Source: Saururus chinensis (taxonomy: Eukaryota; Streptophyta; Magnoliopsida; Piperales; Saururaceae). From it: 64,000 nucleotides of DNA. The notes beneath the pieces are model-generated. The model did not search any database. It had not been told where the DNA came from and worked only from the letters and a program-made list of their open reading frames with translations. Location of the stretch: assembly GCA_035235625.1 (NCBI GenBank), contig CP141149.1:36945753-37009752 (forward strand). Direction: 5' to 3'. Positions 1 to 64,000 of the stretch are shown here, piece after piece. Every line of letters starts with the position of its first letter. Position 1 is the stretch's first letter. The position numbers and the translations under genes are program-made.

Positions 1-3000
1 TTTTGCTATTTTTTGTTCGTATTTTCGACAAAAAAATTTAACGCTTTGGCATATCCATATTTTTAATTGATCATGATATTCGTAACTGTAAGAGTCAAAA
101 GTGGTGTTTAGTCATAGGTCATGGGCCATGACGCATCACAAAAAAAATTTAGCGCAACAATAGGACGAGACGTGGGAGAACAAAAGCGGGAAGAAAGAAA
201 GAGAAATGGAGAAAAAATATATAATATAAAACAAAGCGGATCGGGCGCGGAGTGCCCGACCACGAGGGAATAGTGGAAAGGACTGTTCCCTTCCTTCTGT
301 GAAGCCGGAGGCGGCACCACCGCCGGCCGCCGGCATCCGCCCACCTGGCCATGGCCTGGCGATGCCACTGCCATCACACCGGCCTGGCCCTGCCAGTCGC
401 CGCCATCCCTCTCCTCCCTCTTTCCCGTTTTGACTCGGTCACCCCTTTTCAAAAATTTTCACCCGATCCACTCTGCCACCATCTGTATGGCCTCCACCCC
501 ACTACCACGGCTTCGCCCTGGGCAGAGTGACCTCTGGCCATTGGCGTCCCAGCCTCCCCGCTCCTCCTTCGCTGGCGTGAGGTAAAAATTTGTCCACTTC
601 TTCTGTTTTTCTTGTTCCTGTATGTTGCAAACCACGACCATGTTGTTGATCTCCAGTCACTGCCAACCAGCATTGGCCTTCTCCCGGCCCGGCGACGGCG
701 ATGGCCATGCCTGAACTGCCGCCTCCTCTGGTCCTTCCGCCCTTTTCCGATCTGGATAGATTGCTTCTTCTTGCTCACCGTCACTGGCTCTGACTCGGGC
801 CAACAATAGCTCTCGTGCCCATTCTCCTCTCCTCCACCCCATTGCTCCTCTCAGTCCAAAACACAGAGACTGCCCTATTTTAGTCTAGCGGTGTCAATTT
901 GCCACAGCTAGATTCCAAGTTCGGCCTCTGGCCCTGTCAACTGTTCATGGCCCTGTGATGTGTGTCCTCCGCCCTAGTCTGGCACATTGTCACCCTGCTA
1001 GATCAAATCACTTTGTCCCATTTGATTGACAGTTTCATCGCCACCGATGTCGGTTAGTGGACAACCGCAAACATCGGCTCGCCTAACGACGGTAAGGGTC
1101 AGCCACTTTCAGTCTCCCTTGCACATCTTTTGCCCAAACTAGACACCCCTAAACTTTGGGGTACGTCTCTGACTGCCACTGATAGGCCCCGCTCCAACCC
1201 AAACCAATGTGTCCAACTTGATAGTACGCAGACTTGGGCTACAAGTCCAACCAACATGGGCTCTACCTAGTGACGGCAAGGGCCAACACTTTTGGCTCGA
1301 TTCTACCTATGCACCCTCACTTTTGTTATGCATGACCCAAAACCTACGGGAAAGAGTTTCCGAATTCTGATTCTTCCAAGGAGAAGTAATATTGTCAGCC
1401 ATTAGACTCAGCCCATTGAAGGCTCGGCAGATATCGTGCCCATATCCTCCACTATAAGCCGTGTTTGATGCACGATCGTCCGTATGATGATTTGGTTGTG
1501 AGTAGCAATTAGAAATGTCACTGCCTTTGTCGGCCACCTTCTCTGATGCTTAATGCTCTCAAGTTTGTTTAGGGGACCGTTGCTGGCGAACCTCACCCTT
1601 CTGTGACTGACCACCCTAACCCCTTAAAAGACCACTTTTGTTTTAAGGTTTGGCCATGATAGCACTTGCTAATGCTGTTTGACAGCCGATCCCGCCGAAG
1701 AGTGGTTGGATCCGGCTTCTACTAGCATGAGAAGCTTTGGGACACACCGAAAACCTATCCTCCCCTAGAGTTCCCCTTTTACCGTGCACACTCATGTCGT
1801 GTGCACAATTTAGGCTAAAGGCACCGCCTTTCTGGTGTATGACGATTGAATGACACTACCACTAAGCAATATGGACATTAAAGCCCTCCTCTATCTCCCT
1901 TATGTCCGTGTGTATGCAACCAAGTCCTCCGCCATGTTGTAAGGCTTCGACATTACGGAATTGTTGCCGCTGGATGTGGTCTGCGGTCTATTTTAACGTT
2001 TTGTGGCCAACAAAGTGTTTTTAGTTGTTGGCTGACCTCCAATTAGTCACCTCCTATTATGTGGTCGCTCTTGCCATCCTTAGTGGCACGACCTTGTGTT
2101 CGGCCATCATAATGCGCCCAGTCTTATGCTTTGAGTGAAATTAGTCTAACCTTATTGAGATTAATTCCAACATCTATGTAAATTCTCGGGACAACAACTC
2201 TCCCAATGCAATGCTTTTAACCTCCTATTCCGCCATCGATGCCATCACCATCATTTGCTTGCCATCAAACTCACGTAGATTACGAGGTAGGGGACCTTAA
2301 ACTCATAATTTCATGATAGCATGCTTTGATTGTGTAGTAGCATGCTAGGAATTTGTAACTTAATAATTTGCATGACATATGCTGATTAAATGAGTATCTT
2401 TTATATGTGAATTTTTTGTATGCTAGCAAAGACTAGGGGTATGATAGTAAGGAGTTGATTTATTTGTATGTGATTAGAGAATGTGATCAATCTGTGTGGA
2501 TGATGGGTAAGTGCATGTACAATGGATGGGATGTTTGTCGAATGGATGATTCATGCCTTTGATGGGGAGATTTATGTCTACAGAAGATGTAAGATTGGTG
2601 AAGGATGGATTTGATGTGGTTAGGGGATTGGTTTGGACTAAACTAGTTGGTACATTGGAGCGATGACTAGGAAGCAAAGGGGATGTAAGGATTTGAAGAC
2701 TTAATATTCAAAGCGCCTTTAGTGGACTGTGAGGTAGTAAGAGATAACAACATAATCATACCACATTATGTATGTAATATGAATTGTAATGAAAGAATAA
2801 GGAATAAGGAATTAGTAAGGGTTTGATGATGGAACTTAGGTCTAAAGGATTTCATTCAAGGGGTTCGAGTAAGACATTTTGGTTTTAAGGCGGATGGTGC
2901 AGGATGTAAGGCGGTAAGTATATAATGGTAAGCGCATGCTGACATGGAATTTATATTTGACAAGTAAGGTTATGCAGGGATCTATAAGACTGTAAGGGTA

Positions 3001-4621: not shown

Positions 4622-5093
4622 TATACCTAGTGGGATGGTAAGACAAGAACCAAAACATGTGAATAAATATAGGAGCATACCAAGTGAGATGACTAAATAC
4701 AAACCAAAACAAGTAAATAAATTAATGAAGCAATTCATTGCTTTTCATACTCCACTTTGCCTTATCAAATAAAAGAAAGCAAAGGGGCTACTAAATTACA
4801 CCAAGGAGATCTCCTCAAATCCAAGAAATGTATGCCACTTTGCTAACTAGCTTCAAATTTTTCCTAAAGACTCACCCACTCTATCCACGCTATAAAGCTA
4901 AGGTCCAGAAGGGCTGATGAACTCAAGTAGATTCTCATCTTCCATGATTATCAAGACCTTATTTGTTGTGTTGCATTGGGGTCATTAATCTTTTAATCCT
5001 AAACCCTTGAAACCAACTCCCAGGTTAGAGGAGCAACTCTACAAATATAACTCTCAAGACTTGGGGAGCTAAAGATCCATGAGTGATAAGTAC
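4622..5093. other. Non-coding flank, decayed repeat
   Basis: No gene is visible. The start holds two imperfect copies of a roughly 55-bp unit ('aagacaagaaccaaaacatg' and 'aatacaaaccaaaacaagta'). The stretch before 5093 ('gaggagcaactctacaaata', 'ttggggagctaaagatccat') resembles the flank of another family D element at 54680-54740, so both D copies may have landed in the same older repeat. Confidence 0.4.
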
Positions 5094-6250
5094 AATTTAT
5101 ATATTAGTTTACCCTTAATTATTTTATTTTTTTAGTCTTCTTAAAGAGTTACTATAGCTTATATATATTTAGGAATTAAGGTTAATTAGGTTAGGAAATA
5201 CTTGTATGATATTTTGAATTAAAATGGCCAACTTGTGTGTTTTTTATGCAGTTTCTTCATTGGTGTTCGAATGGGGTAGAAGGCCGTTCAAATGGCTGCA
5301 CATGATTTAAAAAAAATAGAAATAGTTTATCCCGATCCAATAGGCATGCAGGGTGTTCAAAAGGCACAACTCACAATTTCCTATTTTAAGCCAGTTTTGA
5401 GTTATTTTCTTATTAGACTTCCTCTTATGACTCTCATGCCTATATAAAGTCATATGAGGCTTGAAATTATGGAATTTTAGTAGATTTTCTGAGGAAAAAG
5501 GGTGAGGAATATGGAGAAGCATTCAATAGCCTTCTTCTACCATGTAAGGTTAAAATTTTCTTTTACTTACGAATTAATAAAGCTATAGATACGTTTGAGT
5601 TTATTTTTCTTTTTAATTTAGATCTTGTTGTGATTAATGACAATTGTATGACAAGGATTTCCTTTTAAATGGAAGAATTTTCTTGTTTGTTCAATTCTAT
5701 GTTGATTTATTGTCTTGTAGATGATAAATTGATGTGATTTTGAGATCTACATCAATTCTAATTTTTGTGATTTAGATGAGATGGTCATGCAATAATTTTA
5801 ATGTTCATATGATTAATAAATTAGATGAATTATACTAAGATAAAATGAGGCATGCTTATAGTTTTGCTTAGTGTAGATGATTCGTGCTATTGTCGAAGAT
5901 AGTTCATGCTATGAATTTAATTAATGATTCTTTGTAAAGTAATTCTAACTTTTAGGTGAGAATACTTGTTCATATTTACACTAGATTCAGATTAAAGGTT
6001 AAGGAATTTTTATGGATTTATAGTGGATTCAATTTCTTAAGTAATAGTTATTATATTACTCTCTTCCTTTTAGTTTAGTTTAATTAATTTTTTTGTTTAA
6101 TTTAAGTTTAAGTTTTTTATTTTTAATTAACAAATTCTTCTCTTAGATTTGGGGATTAATTCATCTGCCCCTAAGGTTCGACAACCCCTTAATACTAATC
6201 CTGGTACAATTACCTTGTATACTTGCAAAGGGTTTTATTATAAATGATCA
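5094..6250 (-). mobile_element. Family D LTR-like element, copy 1
   Basis: On the minus strand it starts TGATCATTTATAAT and ends ACTTATCA, the TG...CA ends of an LTR. It is flanked by an exact 5-bp target duplication, ATGAG, at 5089-5093 and 6251-6255. It matches copies at 40051-41460, 53203-54634 and 56677-58327, including the tract 'ggttcgacaaccccttaata' and the 'gacaattgtatgac' region. No protein domain is visible. It could be a solo LTR or a short non-autonomous retroelement. This is the most diverged copy: its palindrome cassette near 5264-5363 is eroded. Confidence 0.85.
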
Positions 6251-29599: not shown

Positions 29600-30219
29600 T
29601 GTGACGCCCGAGTTTTTCCTTATATTTGATTGAAATTTTACTAAAATTTTGTTTCAAAATACAGATGTAAATAAAAAGAACCAACAAAATTCAAAATATA
29701 TGAAAACAATTTTCATAAGTTAATTCATCTTACAACAAACCAACATTCTCAGTCGTGACCCGAAATGAAAACATAAAAGTGAAACCTACCATGGCCATGG
29801 TCTTTAAAAAGAAACAAATCTCATGCCTTTCTGAGTACAAGTTCTTCGAGAGTCTGTGTTTTAAATCATACATATATGCACAAGTCTAGAAAATAATACA
29901 TTCAACTCTCACCTTAAGTAATACATTTAATCGTGGCACTAAAATCCCCATAACTTCACTACGACTTCGCTGCGATCCAGGTCAAGGAAGAATAGTCTAC
30001 CATGGGGAATACTCCAGTCCAAAAATCTATCGATCGACCTGCAAAAGCCTCCGAACGAAGGGCTAAAAAAATAGGGTGAGTATTTTCGTACTCAGTAAAG
30101 GAAATAAATCAATGAACCTCGCAAGTTCATACATAGAAGCATTCATGTAACCACACTGAAGCAAGAAGTATATGTAGCATAAATAAAGTATCTTACACAG
30201 ATACAGTCGTACTGGCTAA

Positions 30220-33360: not shown

Positions 33361-36300
33361 CAAGGAGGCGGCGGCTAGTTAACCGGTCTTCTTTTCATTT
33401 TATTTATCGGTTATCATGTGGTTTAAGCGTTTTCTGATTAAATTCGGTGGGTTTCAAAAATAAATGGGATTTATAAAGGTTTTATTCAAAACCAACATCA
33501 CATTTATGGGTTTTAAGTGATTTTGGGTCTAACTTGAATTTTTGGGATTTTTCTAAATTTTCACTAATTTTTCAAAAATTAGGGTTTGGCGGGACACCCC
33601 TATGGGCCCCACCAACAAAATTGGGTTTTTTTGACCAAAATTCCTCATACATCAATGGAAGACACTATAAAAATTTTTAGAATTTTTTGAGACCTAATTT
33701 TGGGTTGAATTGCTAAATTTCCTAATTTTAGTTAAAAACTCTATTTCTACCCCACATTTCTACAAGGTATAGCCAACCCTTACTATAAAAGAGGATGAGC
33801 TGAGCCATTCCCAAATTGGTAATAGGCTTAGCTAGGAGATTGGAGAGTAATCCCCGATTAGGCCCAAAAGGGAAACGATTAGAGGTGAGTTTAGCTTAAT
33901 CTTTACTTAATCTTTAAGTTTTTCTTAAACTCTTCTTAATCTTGACTTGCCCCATTGTTTCAATCCATTTTGAAAACATAAAACCACTGTTTTACATCTC
34001 TTTTCCAAGCCCCAATCTTCAAAATCTTATTTTTATGCTTCCAAAACTCTAGATCTAAGGTTTACTTTTGATTTTCAAAGCTAAATCGAGATTAGTTGTG
34101 TATTAGCATAGAAATCGTTTTTTTGAAAGGTGTTGGAGGAGATTGAGGGTTCATTCCGACCCAAATCAACAAGGAAAGGTAATGGGTCTCTCAAATCTCA
34201 ATTTTGGGTGGTAAAAATCTCGATTTTATGATGTTATTTGGATGGTTTTTGCTTGATTTAGGCTCTAATGGTGGGTTTAATAAATGTTAATCTTTTGTTC
34301 CTATTTCTTAGGGTTTTGTCTTAAAATGATCTAAATTAGTGTTCTAGAAGGTTTGATGGGATTTTGATAGTGTTTGAGACCATGGATGAATGTTTTAAGG
34401 TGCTTTCATGGAGTCTCAGTTTTGATTTTTGAAATGGGGAAGAAGGCCCAAAACTGCTTTGTTGGCGATCGAACGGCCTACCAGGCCGATTGATCGACAA
34501 CACTACATTTTTGGCAGATTTGCAGTTTAGCCGATCGAACGGCCTTGCAGGGCAATCGATCAACTACACAACAGTTTTGCTATTTTCAAAATTTATGTTT
34601 ATTTCGATGTTTTACTCCATTTGATGATTCTAATAGTTATGAGAGGTGTGTTATGATAAAATTAGGTTACTGAAGGTGTAGAATTGATGATGGAAGTTTA
34701 TGGAATGTGTTTAAGTGTGGTCATGTGGCATTATATTATATATTGATGATTATGCATGTTGATATTGAAGTACCTTGAACCTTTGAATGTTGGAATTCTT
34801 GTGATTAGAGTATGTTCCAGTAAGGATATTATATGGAAAATGGTGAGATGTGTTCTCTTATAATGAGGATGGTTTATGAGTAATTGATGTGATCATGTTG
34901 TGGCTTAATGTGTGAAAAAATCATGCATGTAGGAGTGAGCGCTCAATTTCACATAGATGAATTTAAGCTTTATGGTAGATTTTGTTTTGATTTCAGTTGG
35001 GCATCATTGTTTTGAATGTATTTAAGAATGAATATATTGTCTTATGAGTTTATGTTAAGCGTTGGTCATGTACTTCGAATATTCATGAATACACACACAT
35101 ATGGGGAATCTACTATAAATTTGTAGTTAATTATACTTTGATTAAGATGCATGAGGGGGCTGATTGGGAGCACGTTCCATGTGTTGGAACCCATGTAGGT
35201 CTTGCTCACGGATGTATCATGATATCATGCATCATGGATCGGTAGTCTTGAATGAAGTTTTACTGATGTTTAACCGGAATTGATCGATTGTATGCAATGA
35301 TTGAGATTGAGTGCTGGATTAATCGCTCGGTGAATTAATCGGAACTTGGTTGGTCCAAAAGGACATGTTTTTTATTTAAGTTCTTGTGTGGAACATGTAT
35401 ACTCCTCGGGTTGAGTCTAGTTAAATTGAGATATGAGGGACGAGTTGTGTACTTGTCTTGCGGATGAGATTACTTAGATTGTCATCTAAATCTTGAGAAT
35501 CCAGAGTGGTACGCTTAGTACACAAGCTACCACGTGTTCTAGGGTTCCCTGTGTGGGAATTCGGGCTCTCACCCACTGCAGGAGATGTCCCTGGGTAAAC
35601 ACACCTGCTCTAAGTTCTCTATGTGAGAATCAGATATCCTTGGCTAGGATCGTCTAGGGCGAGACAACCCCAACTCTTTTCTCCTTCCTGTGTGGAAATC
35701 GGACCATGTCTCACCTCCGTGGCCTTGACTGTGTCTACCTGTATGGCAATACTTGTGCTTACTCCTTGATGGAGGTATTCACCATTTGTATTGATGCATG
35801 TGTATTATGAATGCTATGCATGATTATGTATCATGTGTTTGACATGTTTGTCGTGCAGGGTGAATGCGGATGTGATAAGAATACATAATCAGAAATAGTG
35901 TGATGAGACACTATTATGCAGGTTTATGTGATATGGTTGCATGATCAAAAAGGGTGTGAAAGATACTTCTTATGTGATTTATGGAATTATCATGCTTGAT
36001 TTTTGTAAATATGAACAAATACCAATGTGAGATACATGTTAGGTTATAACTTTAATATTTATGACTTGACTTGATAGGTATGTCTTATGCACGATAGCTC
36101 TTATGTTTATGGTTAAATAGGGGTTTTAGCTAGTAAATGATCAGAAAGTGGTATAACATGTTAATTTTGGATTTGAATTGCTACATTGTCATGCCATCGT
36201 GTTTTCTTATTATTATAGTTGCATTCAAACCATTATTGAGTTTTTATACTCACCCCACTTTCCTTGTTTTGTTTTGGGGCCGTATGGCGTGACATGCAAT

Positions 36301-36736
36301 CGGATAGGATCCTCTATATGAGGAAAGGTTGGGAAGAGCTTGGGATTAGGCATGGAGGCCTCTAGACTTTGCATGTTTTTCTGATTATGTTGTTATGATG
36401 TTAGAACTCCTTGTGGAGTGGTTCTTGTTTCAGACTTGTGACATATTATGTCTTTAGATTTGTTTGAGACCTTGTTTTGAGCTAAATGTGTTGGCTTTGG
36501 ATTATTAGTATGTGGGTTTAAGACTTATGGATTAATTTTAGAGTTAAACACATCTTGTCGTTCTACTTATTTACTCTTGCTCAAAGTAGTGCATAACTCC
36601 GTTAATTAGACCGTCCGTAGGTGAGGCATAAGTCTTCAGCTATTAATTTAATTGTTTCTCAATATTGTTGCCCCTGTGCGCTGGACCGGCCCTTGGACCT
36701 AGTTTGGCTTGGGTTGGGTAGTGCCAGGGCATGACA
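33361..36736 (+). mobile_element. LTR family B, solo copy
   Basis: Starts with a mutated version of TGTAAGGACC (CAAGGAGGC) followed by 'ttaaccggtc', and ends GGGCATGACA. It is flanked by exact GGGGC duplications at 33356-33360 and 36737-36741. Shared blocks with other family B copies include 'gggtttggcgggacacccct', 'atgggccccacc' and 'ttatttactcttgctcaaag'. It lacks an interior, so it is a solo LTR left by recombination. About 3.4 kb. Confidence 0.8.
34465..34562 (+). repeat. Paired palindrome cassette in LTR B (33361 copy)
   Basis: Four 10-bp units begin at 34466 (CGATCGAACG), 34487 (CGATTGATCG), 34532 (CGATCGAACG) and 34553 (CAATCGATCA). Spacing is 21 bp within each pair and 66 bp between pairs. 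Confidence 0.8.
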
Positions 36737-38040
36737 GGGGCAGTTGTCGTGCCGTCGCTAGGCCGGGGGAGGGCCAAAGGTTGGTCGCAGTGGCCGGTCA
36801 CTGTTGGCATAGCCGGTGGCCGCAACACATAGTGACAAAACAGAACAAAAAGGGGGGGGGGGGAACGCTCAATCCATATCAAAAAATGGCGGAAGGAGGG
36901 GTCACGGCCGGGGAGGCAGAGGTTTGGGCCAGGGGGTGGCAACCTTGTGATCGCCGGGTCGAGAGAGAGCTAGAGGCCCATCAGCGGTGGCCAGTGATAG
37001 ACGGCACAACCACAGGTCGCAAGAGACAGAAAACCGAAACCGAAAAAAGGGCATAGCCAATCTTACCTAAGGCTGGCAGAGGAGGGTGGGGAGGCCGGGA
37101 CGGAAGTGTGAGGAGTTGGTCATGGTAGGGGCGAAGCTGTAGTAGCGGGCTGCCGGCCATGCAACTAGTGGCGGCAGCAGATCCGACGAAACAAAATCAA
37201 AAGGGTGTCATCGAACAAAATCGGGAAAGAGGGAGGAGAGAGACGGCGATGGCTGATGGGGCTAGGCCGGGCCGGGGATGACAGCAGTGGTGTCGCTAGG
37301 CCGAGGCCGACTGAGTGAAAGCCGGTACTACTGCCTTCGGCCTCTCAAAGTGAAGGGGGGCTGTCACGCCCCGGCGATGCCCGACCAGAGCCGAACCCGG
37401 TCCAAGGGCCGGTCAAGCGCGCGGGGGCGACAAAGTGAAATTGATAAACGATCTAGCGGAAGACTTAACCCTAACCACAAGTGATTTAATAGAATTATGG
37501 AGTACGCACAATCCTTTGAGCAAGAGTAAATAAGAAGGAAAGAAAGAGTGTTGCTTATCACAAAGTAAACAACTAATCTCAAACCCACATGCTTAGTTAA
37601 CTATAGCCCACACTGGCTCAAATAAGTATTAAGCAAACATAACTGTAGAATGTGACATAAATCCAAAACAAAGAACCCTACACAAAGGTTCTAAACATAA
37701 AGCATAAAACCAAAGAAGATAAGTCACACAACGATCTCTATGATCACATCCAAGCCATCTCCGACCTTTCCTCAAAGAGGAGATCCTGTCCGTCTGCGTG
37801 TCGCACCACGCAGCCCCAAATCAAAACACAAGAAAGAGGGGTAAGTTTAACAAACTAAGCAATGGTTTTTAATATCACTATCAACATCAAAAATACGATA
37901 GCATAGCATTATGATCATTCAGATCAAAGATTTACATGGTGCATCATTTTCTGATCACACATACACATCACCCAAAACTGCATCATAGTGCATAATCCAC
38001 ATAATGTCATTCTCATCATAATGTCCTGCATGAAATATAT

Positions 38041-38465
38041 CTCTAACATACATATTCCATTATGCATCACATCAAAATCAACCTGCATGGATGTATCTCT
38101 AACATACATATTCCATTATGCATCACATCAAAATCAACCTGCATGGATGTATCTCTAACATACATATTCCATCATGCATCACATCAAAATCAACCTGCAT
38201 TGATGTATCTCTAACATACATATTCCCACATGCATCATATCATAATAAGCCTGCATAGATGTATCTCTAACATACATATTCTCATATGCATCATATCATT
38301 CTCAACCTACATGGATGTATCTCTAACATACATACTTCATCATGCATCACATCATAACATCCTACATGAATGTATCTCTAACATACATCACATCATAATC
38401 AACCTACATGAATATATCTCTAACATACATATTCCATCATACATCATATCATAACATCCTCCATC
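38041..38465 (-). repeat. Tandem array, 56-bp period, in LTR B
   Basis: Units begin 'ctctaacatacatattcc' at 38041, 38097, 38153, 38209, 38265, 38321 and 38376; one later unit (from 38376) is shortened to 42 bp. Units differ by a few bases. ORFs that cross it are artefacts of the repeat. Confidence 0.9.
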
Positions 38466-39691
38466 AAGGAGTAATCACAATTTGGTGTCACACAAACGGG
38501 ACATAGACAAAGCCACGAAGGCATGTCATGGTCCAAAATTCTACACAAAAATTAAAGAAAGATTGGGGTTGTCAATCCCTAAAGATTGCTTGCCCTGGAC
38601 GATCCTGGCCAAGGATGTCCCATTCTCACACAGAGAATCTAGAGCAGGGGTGTTTGCCCAGGGACATCTCCTGTGGAGGGAAGAGCCCGAGTTTCTACAC
38701 AGGAAACCCTAGAACACGTGGTAGCGGGTGCACACAGCATACCACACTGGATTCTCAGGGTCCAGATGACACTCATAATAACATTCTCACAATCCGCAAG
38801 ACAAGTACACAACTTGTCCCCACATAATTCCATTCAACTAGACTCAACCCGGGGAGTGCATTCGTTTCACACAGGAACTCAAATCAAAATATGTCCTTTC
38901 GGACCAATCAACTTACGATTAATCCACGACCGATCAATCCGGCACACAATTTCACCACATTGCATCCAATCGGTTAAATTCGATTAACCTCGATGAAGCC
39001 TCAATTGGAAATCTATTTTCATGATGCATGCAACATGGTACATACATGGGCAAGGCATACATGAATCCTAATCCATGATAAGTGCTCTCATCAGCCCCTA
39101 ATGCATCATTCATAATCACAATATCAAGCTTCAACATCATCGTTTAACCCCCACATGTGTGTGTGTAACTAGTAGAAGCATTTTACACAATGCATGTCAA
39201 CATGCTTGAAATTAAACTCACTACCACACTACACATGTGAATTTCCATCTAAATATGAATTCCAGTGGAAATCATAGGAGAAGAAACGTTGAAATCATAA
39301 CTCAAATCAAAACTCAACCACAAAGGCTACACACACATAAGATCATTCATTTCATCCTTGAGTCATGGCATTCACCAACATCCACACATCAACTAACTAC
39401 ATTCTATCATGACAAATCAATCCATTAATAGGTTGTAGTTCTACTGAAAATATGTTTAACCAAAGGGAATCAACCATTCATAATTTCAAGATGACAATTC
39501 CAACATCATGCCACAAAATATAAGTCATTCCACAAATCTTTAAGCATATATCTCAACTCCATAACCTCAATAGCATGCCTTTCCAGTAGCATAACATAGC
39601 TTAAAACACTCCACATTAATATGAAATTGGCAAGCTAAAGTGGAATCATAGAAATAAACATCATATGCACAACATACAATTTTACTGTGTA

Positions 39692-39854
39692 GCCGTTCGA
39701 ACGCCCTTCAGGCCGTTCGATCGGCTAAACGGGAAAAATTCAAATTCATAGTTTGGCCGTTCGAACGCCCAGTAGGCCGTTTGATCGGCTAAACTGGAAA
39801 ACTGCCGATCCGACAATGTTGCCGTTCGAACGCCCAAAAGGGCCGTTCGAACGC
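39692..39854 (-). repeat. Paired palindrome cassette in LTR B (three pairs)
   Basis: Units of CGTTCGAACG or CGTTCGATCG type begin at 39693 and 39713, 39757 and 39777, 39822 and 39843. Within-pair spacing is 20, 20 and 21 bp; between-pair spacing is 64 and 65 bp. Other copies have two pairs, so this copy seems to have gained one. Confidence 0.85.
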
Positions 39855-40050
39855 CAACAAGGCAGAACTGACCATCTTCTTCCTTTCGCAATTCCAAACC
39901 GAAATACCATTGATAACACTTCAAATCAACATCTAACACCCTAATCATCATCAAAAGTCCTTCATGACTTCCAGAATGTTAAACCATATCATAATAATAC
40001 AAAACCCTAAGAAATCGGGATTAAATATTTTCATTTTCTAATCATGTCAT

Positions 40051-41460
40051 TGATCGTTTATAATTAAACCCTTTGCAAGTGTACAAGGTAATTGTACTAG
40101 GATAAGTATTTAAGGGTTGTTGAACCTCAGGGACGGATGGGTTATTACTAAATCTAAAGAGGAATTTGCTAATTACAAACTAAAACAACTTAAACTTAAA
40201 TTAAGCAAAAGAAAGAAATCAACTAGTTTAAAAAGCAAGAGATTAATATGATGGAATTTACGTAGGAAATTGAATCCACTATAAAACCATAACAATTCCT
40301 TAACTTTTAATCTAAATCTAGTGTGAACATGAACAAGTATTCTCAGCTACAAGCTAGAATTACTTCAAAAAGAATCATTAATTAACTTCCATGGCATGAA
40401 CTATCTTCGACAATAGCACGGATCATCTACACTAAACTAGCTATAGGCATGACCCGTCTAATCTTAGTATAACTCATCCAAGTCATTAATTATCTGAACA
40501 TTAAAACTATTGTATGACCATCTCATCTAAATCACAGAAATTAGAATCGATGCAAATATCAATCTATCATCTACAAGACAATAAATCAACATAGACTTGA
40601 ATAAACATTAAAAGCTCTTCCATTAAAAAGGAAATCCATATCATACAATTGTCATCATTCACAACTGAGATCTAAATTAAAAAGAAAAGAAACTGAAACT
40701 TATCTATAGCTTCATCAACTCCTAAGTAAAAGAAAAGTCTAGCCTTCCATGGTAGAAGAAAGCACTTGAATCTCCATTGAAAGCTTTGAATTCTCTTCCA
40801 TCTTCTTCTTCCTTTTTCTCTTCTTAAAATCTACTAGAAATCCTCTAATTCTAAGCTAAATATGTCTTTTTATAGGCATAAGTTCCGTAGGAAGAAGTCC
40901 AATATGAAAAGGATTGGAATTTGGGTCAAACAAGGAAACTGCATGTTATGCCGATCGATCGCCCTGCATGCCCGATCGATCGGCTACACTGTATTTTCAT
41001 CTGAATTCACTTTATCCCGATCGATCGGTAAGTGACCCCGATCGATCGGCTAAAGTGTTTCTGTTTTCCTGGACAGTTCATATTCTGTTCATTAAGCTTT
41101 CCTTCGTGTCCATATTAATTTCTAACTTGTTTATAACTCTGAAAAGTTGTCCAAATCACTTTAAAGCATGTGAAGACTATTTTTAAGCATTTCAAACATC
41201 GTCCAAGTACTTCGATAAGTGCACTTTACCTACAAAACATAAAATACCATATTTTAGACATGTATAATGTAATTAAAATTCCAACTTGATTTAAATACAT
41301 GTCTAAACAACTAATAACTACAAAATCATTAATAATTAAACTAAAATACTAATATTTATCTTAATCTAAATAAACTATAATTAACTCTAAATTAACCTAA
41401 TTTATACTAGCAAATAAGGTAAAAAGGCATATAAAATAGATATAGATTTCATACTTATCA
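40051..41460 (+). mobile_element. Family D LTR-like element, copy 2
   Basis: TGATCGTTTATAATT...ATACTTATCA, 1410 bp, with exact GTCAT target duplications at 40046-40050 and 41461-41465. It is inserted in the family B solo LTR. It is closest to the copy at 56677-58327. No gag or pol. An open frame of 90 codons (40914-41186) is shared in diverged form by copies 3 and 4. Confidence 0.9.
40951..41052 (+). repeat. Paired palindrome cassette in family D copy 2
   Basis: Four CGATCGATCG units begin at 40952, 40973, 41018 and 41039: 21 bp within pairs and 66 bp between pairs. This is the best-preserved cassette in the window. Confidence 0.9.
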
Positions 41461-42674
41461 GTCATTAACACACCAAATCAAGTAACTCCTTTCGAAATAA
41501 GCCAAAAATCAAGAGTTTTACCATGGATAAACTGAAACTTCAAAGATCTATTACCTTAGCACTTGATTAAGCTCGGATTTAAGGGTCACCCTTCTTGAAA
41601 ACCTTACAAACACATTGAGTTTGAATTAAACTCTATTAAAAATCGATTTACCAAAGAAATCCCTAATTAAAACTTAGATATAGGGCTTGTTGATCATAAA
41701 AATCGAATTTTGAAAGCTAGGGCTTGTAGTAAAATACAAATCAGTAGTTTTTGATGTCCAAAAATGAATTGAAATAAAGGGGAAATAGTAGATTTAGAAG
41801 AGATTAAGAAGAAAGCTATGATTTAGTGCTTAATTAGAGTAGGCTAACCTTAAACACCTTCTAATCCGGGCCTAATTGGGGATTAGGCCTGACCTCTCCT
41901 CCTTAGTCTATTCCCAAAAATGGAAATGTCTCAGGTTTGCCCTTTTATAGTAAGGGTTGGGGTATGTATGGGTAAGTTATGAGGTGTAAATAGGAAAAGT
42001 AGGCTAAAAATTGATATTTTATAAATTTGAGCACTAATTAAGCCTAAGAAAATTCTGAAAATTTTTGTATGGGCTTAAGTAGACATCTGGGTTCATTTGG
42101 TCCAAAAACTAAAATTTCAACGGTGGGGCCCACAGGGGTCCCGCCAAAACCCTAATTTTCAGAAAAATAGTAAAAATTCAAAAAAATCCCAAAAATTCAC
42201 ATTTGTTTTAAAACCATCATAAACACCACTTATTTCACAAAATCACCGAATAAATCAGAAAACGCGTTAATCTTACGATAATCGACAATTAAAGAAAACT
42301 AAAAACCGGTTTAGAGATGAGGGTCCTTACAAGGGCTGCCCCCATTCACTATTCATTCTGTAGGTCGGGCGCATTGAGGCACGCCTGATACGCTTTTATT
42401 TTTTCTTTTTTTCCTCTTCTCTTTCTTCCCGTTTTTGTTCTCCCACTCCCATCCTAATTTCGCGCCAAAATTTTTTGTGATGCGTCAAGGCCGATGACCT
42501 ATGACTAAACACCACTATCGACTCTTACGGTCACAAATATTCCAAATATGGATACGCCAAAGTGTCAAATTTCTTCACTGAAAATAAGAACAAAAAATTG
42601 CAGAACATTGTAGAAAAGTGACAGAAAAATAGCAAAAATTGCAGAAAAATTGTGAGTAAACTAGGGATGTTACA

Positions 42675-53202: not shown

Positions 53203-54634
53203 TGATAAGTAAGAAATATATATCTATTTTATATGCCTTTTTACCTTATTTGCTAGTATAGATTAGGTTAATTAAGAGTTAGTTATAGTTTATTTAGATT
53301 AAGATAAAAATTAGTATTTTAGTTTAATTATTAAAAATGTTATAGTTATTAGTAGTTTAGATATGTATTTGAACAAAGTTGAAATTTTAATTATATTGTA
53401 CATGTCTAAAGGATGATATTTTATATTTTGTAGGTAAAATGTGCTTATCGAGGTACTTGGACGATGTTTGGAATGATTCAAAATAGTCTTGACATGCTTT
53501 AAAGTGATTTGGACAACTTTTTAGAGTTATAAACAAGTTAGAAATTAATATGGACATGCAGAAAAGCTTAATGAACAGAATATGGACTGTCCAGAAAAAC
53601 TGTCCAGATTGTAGAAACATTATAGCCGTTCGAACGGGGTCACTTACCGTTCGCTCAGGATAACGTAATTTTGAAGCAAAACTCAGTTCAAGCGTTCGAA
53701 CTGGCATGCAGGGCGTTCGAACGGCATAACGTGCAGTTTCCTAGTTTTAGCCAATTTTTAATCCTTTTCATATTGGACTTCTTCCTACAGATCTTATGCC
53801 TATAAAAAGACATATTTGGCTTGAAACTAGAGGATTCAAGTAGATTTTATGAAGAGAAAAAGGAAAAATAAGATGAAAGAGAACTCAAAGCTTTCAGTGG
53901 AGATTCAAGTGCTTCCTTCTACCATGGAAGGCTAGACTTTTCTTTTACTTAGGAGTTGATGAAGCTATAGATAAGTTTCAGTTTCTTTTCTTTTTAATTT
54001 AGATCTTAGTTGTGAATGATGACAATTGTATGATAATGATTTCCTTTTTAATGGAAGAACTTTTAATGTTTATTCAAGCCTATGTTGATTTATTGTCTTG
54101 TAGATGATAGATTGATGTGGTTTTGATATTTTCATCGATTCTAATTTCTGTGATTTAGATGAGATGGTCATACAATAGTTTTAATGTTAAGATAATTAAT
54201 GACTTGGATGAGTTATACTAAGATTAGATGTGTCATGCCTATAGCTAGTTTAGTGTGGATGATCCGTGCTATTGTCGAAGATAGTTCATGCCATGAAATT
54301 TAATTAATGATTCTTTCTAAAGTAATTCTAGCTTTTAGTTGAGAATACTTATTCATATTCACACTAGATTTAGATTAAAAGTTAAAGAATTGTTATGGTT
54401 CTATAGTGGATTCGATTTCCTAAGTAATTTCTATCATATTAATCTCTTATTTTTAAACTAGTTGATTTCTTTCATTTACTTAATTAAAGTTTAAGTTCTT
54501 TCTAGTTTTTAATCAACAAATTCTTCCTTAGATTTAGTAATAATTCATTCGTCCCTGAGGTTCGACAACCCTTAAATACTCATCCTAGTACAATTACCTT
54601 GTACACTTGCAAAGAGTTTAATTATAAATGATCA
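53203..54634 (-). mobile_element. Family D LTR-like element, copy 3
   Basis: Minus-strand start TGATCATTTATAATT and end TTACTTATCA, 1432 bp. Flanks GGGAT (53198-53202) and GGGAC (54635-54639) are a duplication with one mismatch. It keeps an open frame of 106 codons (53707-53387) matching that of copy 4 but with many amino-acid changes. Confidence 0.85.
53626..53724 (-). repeat. Paired palindrome cassette in family D copy 3
   Basis: Units begin at 53627 (CGTTCGAACG), 53648 (CGTTCGCTCA), 53693 (CGTTCGAACT) and 53714 (CGTTCGAACG). Spacing is 21 bp within pairs and 66 bp between pairs. This copy uses the GTTCGAAC core, while copies 2 and 4 use GATCGATC. Confidence 0.85.
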
Positions 54635-56676: not shown

Positions 56677-58327
56677 TGATCGTTTATAATTAAACCCTTC
56701 GCAAGTGTACAAGGTAATTGTACTAGGATAAGTATTTAAGGGTTGTCGAACCTCAGGGACGGATGGATTATTACTAAATCTAAAGAGGAATTTGCTAATT
56801 AAAAACTAAAATAAACTTAAACTTAAATTAAGCAAAAGAAAGGAATCAACTAGTTTAAAATAAGAGATTAATATGATGTAAATTACTTAGGAAATCGAAT
56901 CCACTATAGAACCATAACAATTCTTTAACTTTTAATCTAAATCTAGTGTGAATATGAACAAGTATTTTCAGCTACAAGCTAGAATTACTTCAAAAAGAAT
57001 CATTAATTAACTTCCATTGCATGAACTATCTTCGACAATAGCACGAATCATCTACACTAAACTAGCTATAGGCATGACCCGTCTAATCTTAGTATAACTC
57101 ATCCAAGTCATTAATTATCTTAACATTAAAACTATTGTATGCCCATCTCATCTAAATTACAGAAATTAGAATCGATTAAGTATTTTCAGCTACAAGCTAG
57201 AATTACTTCAAAAAGAATCATTAATTAACTTCCATTGCATGAACTATCTTCGACAATAGCACGAATCATCTACACTAAACTAGCTATAGGCATGACCCGT
57301 CTAATCTTAGTATAACTCATCCAAGTCATTAATTATCTTAACATTAAAACTATTGTATGACCATCTCATCTAAATTACAGAAATTAGAATCGATGAAAAT
57401 ATCAAAATCATATCAATCTATCATCTACAAGACAATAAATCAACATAGACTTGAATAAACATTAAAAGCTCTTCCATTAAAAAGGAAATCCATATCATAC
57501 AATTGTCATCATTCATAACTGAGATCTAAATTAAAAAGAAAAGAAATTGAAACTTATCTATAGCTTCATCAACTCCTAAGTAAAAGAAAAGTCTAGCCTT
57601 CCATTGTAGAAGAAAGCACTTGAATCTCCATTGAAAGCTTTGAGTTCTCTTCCATCTTCTTCTTCCTTTTTCTCTTCCTAAAATCTACTGGAATCCCCCC
57701 AATTTTAAGCCAAATATGTCTTTTTATAGGCATAAGTTCTATAGGAAGAAGTCCAATATGAAAAGGATTGGAATTTGGGTCAAGCTAGGAAACTACAAGT
57801 TATGCCGATCGATCGCCCTGCATGCCCGATCGATCGCTTGAACTGTATTTTTGTCTGAATTCACGTTATCCCGATCGATCGGTAAGTGACCCCGTTCGAT
57901 CGGATACAGTGTTTCTGCAATCTGGACAGTTTTCCTGGACAGTTCATATTCTGTTCATTAAGCTTTCCTTCGTGTCCATAATAATTTTTAACTTGTTTAT
58001 AACTCCGAAAAGTTGTCCAAATCACTTTAAAGCATGTGAAGACTACTTTGAACTATTCAAAACATCATCCAAGTACTTCGATAAGCGCACTTTACCTACA
58101 AAACATAAAATACCATATTTTAGACATGTAGAATATAATTAAAATTCCATCTTGATTTAAATACATGTCTAAACAACTAATAACTACAAAATCATTAATA
58201 ATTAAACTAAAATACTAATATCTATCTTAATCTAAATAAACCATAATTAACTCTAAATTAACCTAATCTATACTAGCAAATAAGGTAAAAAAGGCATATA
58301 AAATAGATATATATTTTATACTTATCA
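56677..58327 (+). mobile_element. Family D LTR-like element, copy 4
   Basis: TGATCGTTTATAATT...ATACTTATCA with exact GTCCC duplications at 56672-56676 and 58328-58332, nested in the CACTA element. The extra length over copy 2 (1651 against 1410 bp) is largely a 218-bp tandem duplication: 'aagtattttcagctacaagc' begins at 56960 and again at 57178. Open frame 57822-58142 (106 codons) matches that of copy 3. Confidence 0.9.
57805..57906 (+). repeat. Paired palindrome cassette in family D copy 4
   Basis: Units begin at 57806, 57827, 57872 (all CGATCGATCG) and 57893 (CGTTCGATCG): 21, 66 and 21 bp spacing as in copy 2. Confidence 0.9.
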
Positions 58328-60632: not shown

Positions 60633-60943
60633 GTAACAATATTGAATATTTAGATTATACACAATTGGTATATTTTGTGTACTCGAGACCATGATATTGA
60701 ACTTATCGTGTTAAGGGTAAATCATATCGTGGGAAGTTATAAACACGACCTGTAATATATCGTATTAGTAATTACACGATAGACACATGCGATAGAGCAA
60801 TTATATGTTGCATCAAAGCTATAATATCACGACATGCATCCATGTCGTGGTTTCAATAACACGTCTTTAAATGTTTGCGTGTTAACAGAATACACGATGT
60901 TGATTAATTTTGCATTTTTTTAACACGATAATGTGCAATGCAG
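60633..60943 (+). repeat. CACGA/TCGTG motif cluster in MULE intron 1
   Basis: About ten words of TATCGTGTTA, AACACGAT or ATCACGAC type in both orientations within 311 bp. The neighbouring exons do not show them. Confidence 0.7.
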
Positions 60944-61750
60944 ATTGGGAGAACCGGGAAACTTGCCCTCAACAAATCTATGTCAATCATCTTTCACCGA
61001 TCCTGCGAGTACAGAACCTGAAATAGAGGTTAATCAGAATAGATCAGAGGAATTGCCACCAATGATGGGTGGGACAAGGACTTCATTTGATAACTATGAA
61101 CCTCCATACAACCCTTGTAATTACGACGGTGGACAAGGAAAAGAAGTTAAAAATATGTGGGATGAGGATCTGTGGTACGATAATGATATAGTTGACATGG
61201 AAAGTATGTCTGACCACGAAGAATTTGGAAACAGCGAGGTTCCCAGTAACATCGACATTGAGGTAGAGGCAGATTGGGATACCGTCGATGATTTAAACAT
61301 GTTGGAACTGAATATTGATGACGACCAACTAATGACGGGTAGCTTGCAAGCTAAGGATTACCAGAAGCTCCTCGAATTGGGTACACGTTTTCTAAGTTTG
61401 TTGCATTTCAAGAGGGTCTTGATCGACTTAGCAATAAAGGTGAATTTCACATATCGTGTTGTGGATGAAAACCGGAATACATATGCCGCAAAGTGCTCCA
61501 ATGAAACTTGTAACTGGTACATAAGGGCTTCAAATATAGGAGATCATGTGGCTGTCACGAGGTTAGTGCCGACTTATTCATGGAACCCAAAGGAAGTCAG
61601 CTAACCATCCCCTAGCATCGCACCTTTGGATAGCGAGAAAATGTTATGACCTCTTTAAAGACTTTGTGGACATTACACCTAAGAGCATATCAAGTTATAT
61701 TTCGAAGCACTGGGGCATAACTGCGAACTGCAAGAAATGCTGGTGTGCAA

Positions 61751-62018
61751 GTAATGCATGAGAAGAAACGAAGTGTTGATTTAGTGTCACGATATGTTAG
61801 TCTAGCGTGTTATCATTTACATGCTTAAACTATAGTCGATATTGTGTTATCCATATCGTGTTATTAATCACACGACATATGTCCATATCGTGTTACCATA
61901 AACACGATTAGGCATCGTGTATGGATTCCAATCACACGAACATAAACTGTCGTGCAATCGGGAACATAATGTCATTTGGTGTCATTTAACATTTACTAAA
62001 TTGTATTTGGTCATGCAG
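61751..62018 (+). repeat. CACGA/TCGTG motif cluster in MULE intron 2
   Basis: About nine words of the same motif (ATCGTGTTA twice, CACACGAC, AACACGAT, ATCGTGTA and others) in 268 bp, although this intron has no other likeness to intron 1. Confidence 0.7.
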
Positions 62019-62687
62019 GTAAAGCTCTGACTGATTTAATAGATGGTGACCCAGACGAATCCTACCGCTTACTTCCTTCTTATGGGAGGCAAATAGAATA
62101 TATAAATCCGGAAAGTGTAGTTGTGCCAGTGAGATCATGTGACATACCCGGCCCTATGGGTGGGTACGATTTCAAAAGAGTATTCTGGATGTTTGGCCCT
62201 ATTGAGAGAGCGTTCAGAACAACCTTGAGGCCGTTGTTAATGGTTGATGCAACTTTCTTGAAAGGAAAGTGTAAGGACCCTCATCTTTAAAACCGGTTTT
62301 GATTTTTATTTAATTATGGGTTATCGTGCAATTTACGTGTTTTCTGATCTTATTCGGTGATTTCGTAAATAAATAGAGTTTGTGATGGTTTTAACCAAAA
62401 TTAACTTCAATATTAGTGGTTTTAAGTGATTTTAAACCAAATGTGAATTTTTGGAATTTTTTGGATTTTTCACTATTTTCCCAAAAATTAGGGTTTTGGC
62501 GGGACCCCTGTGGGCCCCACGGTTGAAAATTTTATTTTTATGTCAAATGAACCTAGACATATACTTAAGGTCACACAAAAATTTTCAGAATTTTATTAGG
62601 CTTAATTCGTGCTTAAATTTGCAAAATAACCACTTTTAGCCTACTTTTCATATTTACACCCCAAAACTTACCTATGCCTACCCCAAC

Positions 62688-62702
62688 CCTTACTATAAAA
62701 GG
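62688..62702 (+). promoter_or_regulatory. TATA-like box of LTR B
   Basis: 'ccttactataaaagggc' is kept in the family B copies at 62270 and 37362 (as 'cccttttatagtaagggt' on the plus strand near 41941) and at 33361 ('cccttactataaaagagg' near 33779). Conservation in three copies supports a promoter role. Confidence 0.6.
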
Positions 62703-63371
62703 GCAAACCTGAGCCATTTCCATTTTTGGGAATAGGCTAAGGAAGGAGGGCTGGCCTAATCCCCACTTAGGCCCGAATTAGAAGCCGATTAAGGTAAGCT
62801 TGCTCTAATTAAGCACTAATCCATGGCTTTTCTCTTAATTTCTTCCAAATCTACCATTTTCCCCTTGATTCAATTCGTTTTTGACCATCAAAAGCTACTA
62901 ATTTGTGTTTTACTACAAACCCTAACATTCAAAATTCGATTTTTACTACCAACAAGCCCTAGATCTAAGATTTAATTAGGGATTTCTTAAGTAAATCGAT
63001 TTCCATTGGTGTTTAATTCAAACTCATTGTATTTTCAAGGATTTCAAGAAGGGTGACTCTTCAATCCGAGCTTAATCAAGTGCTGAGGTAATGGGTCTTC
63101 GAAATCTCTGTTTATCCATGGTAAAACTCTTCATTTTTGGCTTATTCCGAAATGGTTTGCTTGATTTAGTGTGTTAATGGTAAGATTAGAAAATGGAATT
63201 ATTTAATCCCGATTTCTTAGGGTTTTGCATTATTATGGTTTGGTTTGATATTCTGGAAGTCAAGGAGGACTTTTGATGATGATTAGGGTGTTAGATGTGG
63301 ATTTGAAGTGTTTTCTATGGTGTTTCGGTTTGGATTTGCGAAAGGAAGAAGATGACTGTTTTGTCGTGTTG

Positions 63372-63473
63372 GCGATCGATCGGCCTTGCAGGGCGATCGA
63401 TCGGCTGAACTGAAAATTTTAAAATTTTGCGTGTAACCGATCGAACGGCCTGAAGGGCGATCGATCGGCTACA
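63372..63473 (+). repeat. Paired palindrome cassette in LTR B (62270 copy)
   Basis: Units begin at 63373 (CGATCGATCG), 63394 (CGATCGATCG), 63438 (CGATCGAACG) and 63458 (CGATCGATCG). Spacing is 21 and 20 bp within pairs and 65 bp between pairs. Confidence 0.9.
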
Positions 63474-64000
63474 CAGAAAATTGCATGTTGAGTGTATGAT
63501 GCCTATTTTGATGATTCCACTTTGGCTTGCCAATTTTATACGAATGTGGAGTGTTTTAAGCTATGTTAGGCTACTGGAAATGTATGCTATTGAGTTTATG
63601 GAGTTGAGATATATGCTTAGTGATGGTGGAATGACTTATGTTTTGTGGCATGATGTTGGAATCGTTATTTTGAAATTATGAATAGTTGTTTCCCTTTGGT
63701 TAAGCATATTTCAGTAGGACTACAATCATTGTTGGACAGATTTGTCATGATAAATTGTGATTAATGGTGTGTGAATGTTGGTGAATACCATGACTCAATG
63801 ATGGAATGAGTGATGTTATAGGTGTTTAGCCTTTGTGGTTGAGTTTTGAATCTAGCTAAGATTTCAACGATTCTTCTACTATGATTTCCCCTGGAATTCA
63901 TGTTTAGGTAGAAATTCACATGTGTAGTGTGGTAGTGAGTTGATTTTCAAGCATGTTAATATGCATCATGTGAAAGGCTTCTACTAGTTACACACACACA

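What the first reader, a model, noticed from the sequence alone, without database searches (positions are those of the whole stretch)
40951..41052. Helically spaced palindrome cassette: 21 + 66 + 21 bp
Four CGATCGATCG units start at 40952, 40973, 41018 and 41039. The same grid, with units of CGATCGATCG, CGTTCGAACG or hybrid type, recurs at 57806/57827/57872/57893, 53627/53648/53693/53714, 34466/34487/34532/34553, 63373/63394/63438/63458, 39693-39843 (three pairs) and, eroded, 5264/5284/5333/5354. Spacing is 20-21 bp within pairs and 63-69 bp between pairs, close to two and six turns of B-DNA. The positions are read directly. That the grid is a docking site for a dimeric DNA-binding protein on one face of the helix is inference.
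Basis: partly seen in the sequence, partly recalled or inferred. Interest (0 to 1): 0.85.

Follow-up and report, generated by a model that had tools for sequence, protein, structure and literature searches.

The report
Palindrome array shared by plant LTRs
Two seemingly unrelated families of what look like plant jumping genes carry the same spaced set of short DNA palindromes in their terminal repeats, most likely docking sites for a regulatory protein, and whole sets appear to have switched between two spellings together.

Summary
Fifteen pairs of CGWTCGAWCG-type palindromes (30 units) lie 20-21 bp apart within pairs and 64-69 bp pair to pair. All 15 lie inside LTRs: four copies of family A (1.2-1.65 kb, all solo LTRs), two of family B (3.6 kb, one cut by the window end) and one B relative, C. 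A and B/C show no convincing homology outside the cassette.

In A a conserved TATA box follows 77 bp after the cassette. In B/C the shared TATA box lies about 680 bp before it.

Most unusual: positions 3 and 8 of the units switch A<->T together across an element. A1 vs A2 differ at 7 of 8 such positions against 17 of 960 A/T sites elsewhere; B1 vs B2 at 6 of 8 against 37 of 1053. Spacers inside A pairs are unchanged and outer flanks follow orthology.

Best reading: an LTR cis-regulatory array read by a dimeric DNA-binding factor, like Sirevirus palindromic boxes but with another core and a paired grid. A hairpin/siRNA role is a serious rival, especially in B/C. "One helical face" fits within pairs, not between them (66 bp, 6.3 turns). 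The host genome could not be searched; everything rests on seven copies.

The parts
40051..41460 (-). A1: solo LTR of family A, nested in B1; TSD GTCAT/GTCAT
   Evidence: TGATAAG...GATCA ends and 5-bp TSD; the related B2 copy shows the uninterrupted site
40951..41052 (.). Cassette of A1: units 40952, 40973, 41018, 41039, all CGATCGATCG (A-type)
   Evidence: LTR-sense positions 413-509 of 1410
40863..40878 (-). TATA box of A1 (TGCCTATAAAAAGACA), 77 bp beyond the last unit in LTR sense
   Evidence: conserved in 4 of 4 A copies, A4 reading CCTATATAAAG
53203..54634 (+). A2: solo LTR of family A; flanks GGGAT/GGGAC; cassette 53627-53723, T-type units
56677..58327 (-). A3: solo LTR of family A with an internal 220-bp duplication (99.1%); TSD GTCCC/GTCCC; cassette 57806-57902, A-type with one hybrid unit
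5084..6250 (+). A4: older solo LTR of family A; TSD ATGAG/ATGAG; eroded, mostly T-type cassette, units 5264, 5285, 5333, 5354
37362..42331 (-). B1: solo LTR of family B (3555 bp without A1); TGTAAGG...GTGACA; flanks GCCCT/GCCCC; cassette 39694-39853 with three pairs, mostly T-type
62270..64000 (+). B2: LTR of family B, cut by the window end; cassette 63373-63467, A-type with one hybrid unit
33381..36736 (+). C: 5'-truncated LTR related to B (35-39% diverged); cassette 34466-34562, A-type and hybrid units
62690..62705 (+). Shared TATA box of B2 (TTACTATAAAAGGGCA), 679 bp before the first unit
   Evidence: TTACTATAAAAG is invariant in B1, B2 and C; distance 681, 679 and 682

Best explanation
The cassette is a cis-regulatory array in LTRs of plant retrotransposons. 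Each unit, about GCCGWTCGAWCGGC, is a dyad-symmetric site for a dimeric sequence-specific DNA-binding factor, host-encoded or encoded by a retrotransposon. Two units two helical turns apart form an inverted pair of about 45 bp, and two or three pairs form the array. In family A it acts as an upstream activating or anti-silencing element just before the TATA box; in B/C it would act from about 680 bp beyond the TATA box. Positions 3 and 8 are read by the factor, so the set moves between an A-type and a T-type spelling as a whole. Shown: location in LTRs, symmetry, sharing between the families, concerted spelling. Inferred: binding, a dimer, activation, the transcription starts.
For: All 15 pairs lie in LTRs: four A copies with TG..CA ends and 5-bp TSDs (3 of 4 perfect, 1 with one mismatch), plus B1, B2 and C. 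A TATA box follows 77 bp after the last unit in 4 of 4 A copies. Outer flanks of A arms resemble those of B/C: scored with a B/C matrix over positions 11-19, A1, A2, A3 are reached by 0, 0, 1 of 20,000 random draws (5, 17, 5 over positions 13-19; inner flank 8, 10, 8). Positions 3/8: A1-A2 7 of 8 swapped vs 17/960 (p 1.8e-11); B1-B2 6 of 8 vs 37/1053 (p 8e-8). Homogeneity by element: A 29 of 32 half-sites (1 of 20,000 shuffles as high), B/C 23 of 28 (43 of 20,000). At these positions orthologous identity is 10/24 (A1-A3) and 2/8 (B1-B2) against 30/36 and 18/24 within elements, while A intra-pair spacers are 66/66 by orthology and 9/33 within elements. Outer flanks (26 of 30 arms, A4 left out) follow orthology, 6.67 of 9, not element, 4.38-5.00. 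Unit CpGs are kept 10-12 of 12 among A1-A3, other CpGs 6 of 15 to 8 of 21.
Against: Agreement of positions 3 and 8 within units is not above shuffles (22 of 30, mean 22.5), so strict dyad reading of these bases is not shown. The cassette lies on opposite sides of the TATA box in A and B/C. Spacing is not kept better than background. With one outgroup each, the switch runs T to A in family A but A to T in B1, which does not suit one drifting factor. In the old copy A4 only 3 of 10-12 unit CpGs are shared with the others. Flanks of the first A pair's second unit do not resemble B/C (top 10-25% of random sites). With units masked, 3 of 9 A-B/C alignments are not convincing (18, 67, 109 of 300 shuffles as good). 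In B/C the flanks add hairpin stability beyond the units. The p-values treat sites as independent; the sample is seven copies in one window.
Confidence: 0.5

Rival explanations
1. The cassette works as a nucleic-acid hairpin, in LTR RNA or as a cruciform in DNA: an RNA structure used by the element (packaging, dimerisation) or a source and target of siRNAs used by the host, as proposed for maize Sirevirus palindromes. Concerted spelling then reflects the need of units to stay complementary to each other.
For: Five of the seven cassettes were folded and all five lie below dinucleotide shuffles (z: A1 -7.4, A2 -3.2, A3 -2.9, B2 -8.6, C -6.1). With units fixed and other bases shuffled (all seven), B1, B2 and C still fold better than all 200 controls and A1 better than 198 of 200. 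In B/C the cassette follows the TATA box, so it is probably transcribed. Palindrome-rich regions of Sirevirus LTRs attract excess small RNAs (PMC10760457, PMC5311732, passages).
Against: A2, A3 and A4 fold no better than unit-fixed controls (51, 137 and 178 of 200 as good or better). Predicted topologies differ between copies. Hybrid first units, which cost a base pair with their partner, persist in B1, B2 and C.
Confidence: 0.27
2. Concerted evolution without function: the cassette arose by tandem duplication of a ~65-bp monomer, and its units are homogenised by template switching or quasipalindrome repair during reverse transcription. Spacing and spelling are by-products.
For: B1 has a third monomer in register (39671-39810 vs 39735-39876, 74%). 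Units are mutually complementary and so prone to self-templated repair (recalled mechanism). Spacing is no better kept than background. A1 differs from A3 at 7 of 35 inter-pair spacer sites against 60 of 1311 in the rest of the LTR, as a patchy event might leave.
Against: Conversion tracts would have to stop at the 10-14 bp units: intra-pair spacers (66/66 by orthology, 9/33 by element) and outer flanks are not homogenised. It does not explain the same array in two otherwise dissimilar LTR families.
Confidence: 0.15
3. The cassette is only a dense CpG methylation target through which the host silences the LTR; unit sequence is otherwise irrelevant.
For: CpG observed/expected is 1.29-1.91 in 6 of 7 cassettes (A4 0.70) against 0.37-0.59 for the LTRs with pattern-matching units masked.
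Against: It predicts neutral, unlinked drift at positions 3/8, not a set-wise switch. Methylated CpGs should decay, yet unit CpGs are kept in the younger copies.
Confidence: 0.08

Closest known systems
Palindromic repeated-motif (RM) boxes of Sirevirus LTRs (PMC2829016: passages including the abstract, and section 9, read)
   Same: CpG-rich palindromes repeated in the upper half of an LTR, shortly before a conserved TATA box (as in family A), shared by otherwise diverged elements, with the symmetric sequence differing between elements.
   Different: 12 of the paper's 13 RMs have a CGG-CCG core; here it is CCG-ATCGAT-CGG or CCG-TTCGAA-CGG. Here units stand in inverted pairs on a 21/64-69 bp grid and, in B/C, after the TATA box. 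Sirevirus elements hold at least 8 copies in all (3 to 14 in the 3' LTR); here 4-6 per LTR, internal regions unseen. The superfamily of A and B/C is untested.
VANC target-motif arrays of Arabidopsis VANDAL transposons (PMC5735166, passages read)
   Same: Arrays of a short motif in non-coding TE DNA, with two spellings (C-type and T-type), one of them confined to a subfamily, that evolve together.
   Different: VANDALs are DNA transposons; the motif is a nonamer in one orientation at high density; the TE encodes its binder. No binder is known here.
Repeat enhancers in the U3 of Tnt1 and Tto1 (recalled; symmetry of Tnt1 box I is mentioned in a passage of PMC2829016)
   Same: Repeated or symmetric activator sites upstream of TATA in an LTR.
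   Different: Different sequence and element group; their activity is experimentally known (recalled), this one's is not.
Operator-like array in viral contig L001 (416-493)
   Same: A 14-bp palindrome AACGTTCGAACGTT four times, 21-22 bp apart.
   Different: A contig whose genes look phage-like by eye; a resemblance of layout only.

Membership tests
Solo LTR of an LTR retrotransposon (family A) | TG...CA ends and 4-6 bp target-site duplication | tested here: met
   4 of 4 copies; GTCAT/GTCAT, GTCCC/GTCCC, ATGAG/ATGAG, and GGGAT/GGGAC with one mismatch
Solo LTR of an LTR retrotransposon (family B) | TG...CA ends and target-site duplication | tested here: met
   B1: TGTAAGG...GTGACA, flanks GCCCT/GCCCC, 4 of 5 bases alike. 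B2 is cut by the window and C is truncated: not testable there
Sirevirus RM box | Palindrome with CGG-CCG core | tested here: not met
   Units are CCG...CGG; the paper's table has one exception, Tnd-1 ACAATCGATTGT
Sirevirus RM box | At least eight copies per element | tested here: inconclusive
   4 units in A1-A4, B2 and C, 6 in B1; the paper counts linker copies too and lists 3-14 in the 3' LTR; no internal region is seen here
Sirevirus RM box | Upper half of the LTR, TATA box shortly after | tested here: inconclusive
   Met in A (413-509 of 1410 in A1, TATA 77 bp after); in B/C the TATA box precedes the cassette by 679-682 bp
Sirevirus RM box | CpG island over the boxes | tested here: inconclusive
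   200-bp windows: CpG o/e 1.16-1.67 in 6 of 7 but GC only 0.41-0.51; A4 o/e 0.48
Sirevirus (Ty1/copia) | Conserved PBS/PPT junctions and Copia pol | not testable with these tools
   No internal region of A, B or C was recognised in the window
VANC-type anti-silencing target | Bound by an element-encoded VANC protein | not testable with these tools
   Binding cannot be tested; no search for a binder was made, and the host genome was unreachable

The most novel reading that the evidence does not exclude
The cassette carries a two-letter recognition code: an A-type (CGATCGATCG) and a T-type (CGTTCGAACG) spelling correspond to two DNA-binding specificities present in the same plant. Two dissimilar LTR families have independently moved whole arrays from one to the other, in opposite directions, as they changed which factor activates or protects them.
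Probability: 0.25. Interest if true: 0.78.

Novelty: new variant of a known kind. Interest (0 to 1): 0.5.

Why it matters
If the array is a docking site shared across LTR families, one host or TE protein could control several retrotransposon families at once, and the two spellings give a direct, cheap test of how transposons follow or escape their regulators. It would also extend palindromic LTR boxes beyond the Sirevirus core sequence.

Tried and rejected
Strict helical phasing of the whole grid: rejected between pairs (66 bp = 6.3 turns). Spacing conserved beyond background: not supported for 97-bp windows; the constant TATA-to-cassette distance in B/C (679-682) is not remarkable either, since 17-46% of 680-bp windows change by at most 3 bases. 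Selection on agreement of positions 3 and 8 within a unit: not supported. Strong homology of A and B/C LTRs outside the cassette: blastn gives the cassette and weaker matches, the best outside it at E 6.9e-4. With units masked, 0, 2, 5, 6, 6, 16, 18, 67 and 109 of 300 shuffles reach the nine observed scores. Third-family grids at 30027 and 33180: the first is not kept in its homologue near 4180; the second was only read. Relatives in viral contigs: the three-unit grid gave 2 contigs; L001 has genes that look phage-like by eye, of L002 only 301 bases were read; an A-LTR end pattern gave none. Literature: exact unit strings were sought in four searches; the six papers listed do not, by title, concern this array, and searches gave none. 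PMC4728375 (Sirevirus palindromes and siRNA) is not held and is known only from passages citing it. Searches failed on short terms (one search was repeated with longer terms; one search was replaced). That B2 interrupts a MuDR-like gene is by eye only: the 90-codon frame before it is open but has no Pfam match.

Full report
Check of the observation. The four CGATCGATCG units are at 40952, 40973, 41018 and 41039, and the other grids are present with one-base corrections (5285 for 5284; triple cassette at 39694/39714, 39758/39778 and 39823/39844). A scan for CGWTCGAWCG finds 21 perfect units and 8 pairs at 19-23 bp, against no pair in 30 dinucleotide shuffles; at two mismatches 17 pairs, against a mean of 0.07. 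Of these 17, 14 are cassette pairs. The three extra pairs (30027, 30031, 33180) lie elsewhere, and the sequence at 30027-30031 is not kept in a 77% homologue. One eroded cassette pair (5333/5354) is missed at that threshold.

What carries it. All 15 pairs lie in LTRs. Family A has four copies: A1 40051-41460(-), A2 53203-54634(+), A3 56677-58327(-) and A4 5084-6250(+). Each has TGATAAG at one end and GATCA at the other, and a 5-bp duplication, perfect in three of four. A1 is nested in B1, and the related B2 shows the uninterrupted site. Family B is B1 (37362-42331, minus strand, flanks GCCCT/GCCCC) and B2 (from 62270 to the window end). C (about 33381-36736) is a 5'-truncated relative, 35-39% diverged. 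B1 itself sits in a repeat whose uninterrupted homologue appears to be window 1-585 (alignments). I recognised no internal region of A, B or C in the window, so their superfamily is open.

Place in the LTR. In LTR sense the cassette of A1 occupies 413-509 of 1410. In 4 of 4 A copies a TATA box (CTATAAAAAG; CTATATAAAG in A4) follows after 77 bp: A1, A2 and A4, A3 from its TATA position, because the script caught an earlier CCTATA in A3. In B/C the only TATA pattern searched that all three share, TTACTATAAAAG, begins 679-682 bp before the first unit (counted from the TATA itself); B2 is seen only for its first 1.73 kb. So the cassette is probably upstream of the start site in A and inside the transcribed part in B/C. 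There are no transcript data.

Anatomy. Each pair is an inverted repeat whose arms read outward roughly GSGCGWTCGAWCGGCTAMACTG, so symmetry exists at unit and pair level; the B2 cassette as a whole is also an inverted repeat (63366-63474, 80%). Arm flanks are similar between families: scored with a matrix from B/C arms over positions 11-19, A1, A2 and A3 are reached by 0, 0 and 1 of 20,000 random draws; without the two bases next to the unit, by 5, 17 and 5. Not every arm fits: the second unit of the first A pair scores like the top 10-25% of random sites. With units masked, local alignment of A with B/C is mixed, 0 to 109 of 300 shuffles reaching the observed score in nine comparisons. The shared object is thus the pair module, not the LTR.

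Spacing. Within pairs 20-21 bp (two turns at 10.5). Pair to pair 64-66 bp, 69 in A4, i.e. 6.1-6.6 turns, so pairs are not strictly on one face. Within families spacing is not unusually well kept: 97-bp windows change length by at most one base in 59% (B2-C), 38% (B1-C), 85% (A1-A2) and 41% (A1-A4) of placements.

The unusual signal. Units come in two spellings, CGATCGATCG and CGTTCGAACG, plus hybrids. A1 and A3 are A-type (8 of 8 and 7 of 8 half-sites); A2 and A4 T-type (7 of 8 each); B1 T-type (10 of 12); B2 A-type (7 of 8); C mostly A-type (6 of 8). Between A1 and A2 7 of 8 such positions are swapped, against 17 of 960 A/T sites elsewhere (p 1.8e-11), while the intra-pair spacers show 0 of 22 changes and the inter-pair spacer 14 of 35. 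Between B1 and B2 it is 6 of 8 against 37 of 1053 (p 8e-8); here B1's middle pair was left out, the 6 of 8 was entered by hand and agrees. Homogeneity by element exceeds shuffles (29 of 32 in A, 1 of 20,000; 23 of 28 in B/C, 43 of 20,000), but agreement of the two positions within units does not (22 of 30, mean 22.5). These figures treat sites as independent and come from few lineages. By contrast, outer flanks (26 of 30 arms, A4 left out) and A intra-pair spacers follow orthology, not element. Conversion tracts longer than a unit are therefore unlikely.

Mechanism. I prefer a docking array for a dimeric factor whose preference at positions 3/8 the whole set must match. The first unit of a pair is in the A,T hybrid state in 7 of 15 pairs (5 of them exactly CGATCGAACG), so the match need not be perfect. 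Polarity, judged from one outgroup each (A4, C), runs T to A in family A and A to T in B1. That does not suit one factor drifting in one direction; it suits two coexisting specificities or a neutral toggle.

Rival. Five of seven cassettes were folded as RNA against dinucleotide shuffles, and all five are more stable (z -2.9 to -8.6). With units held fixed and other bases shuffled, flanks still add stability in B1, B2 and C (0 of 200 controls each) and A1 (2 of 200), but not in A2, A3 or A4 (51, 137 and 178 of 200). Hairpin selection is therefore a real possibility for B/C, where the cassette is probably in the transcript, and less so for A.

Known relatives. Sirevirus LTRs carry palindromic boxes upstream of TATA (PMC2829016, passages and section 9). 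They share dyad symmetry, CpG richness, place and sequence differences among elements, but 12 of 13 have a CGG-CCG core. Maize work links such palindromes to small RNAs (PMC10760457, PMC5311732, passages). VANC target motifs also come in two spellings, one confined to a subfamily (PMC5735166, passages). Exact unit strings were sought in four literature searches; no report of this array was found in that open-licence library.

Limits. All conclusions rest on seven copies in one window.

Noticed in passing
L001:416-493: Viral contig with four perfect AACGTTCGAACGTT palindromes 21-22 bp apart, an operator-like array near one contig end.
   Followed up: partly
37979-38413: Tandem repeat of 56-bp period, at least six copies, inside the B1 LTR.
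   Followed up: no
56960-57397: A 220-bp tandem duplication at 99.1% identity inside A3, apparently younger than the LTR.
   Followed up: no
60933-62269: MuDR DNA-binding domain in the frame 60933-61604; the 90 codons just before LTR B2 are open and look like transposase by eye, but have no Pfam match.
   Followed up: partly
30027-30070: Loose resemblance to a cassette pair (CTATCGATCGACCTGCA...CCGAACGAAGGGCTAAA) in a third repeat family; not kept in its homologue near 4180.
   Followed up: partly
40962-40972 and the same place in A2-A4: The spacer inside the second A pair contains CATGCA (LTR sense), the core of the RY element bound by B3-domain factors (recalled); kept in 4 of 4 A copies.
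   Followed up: no
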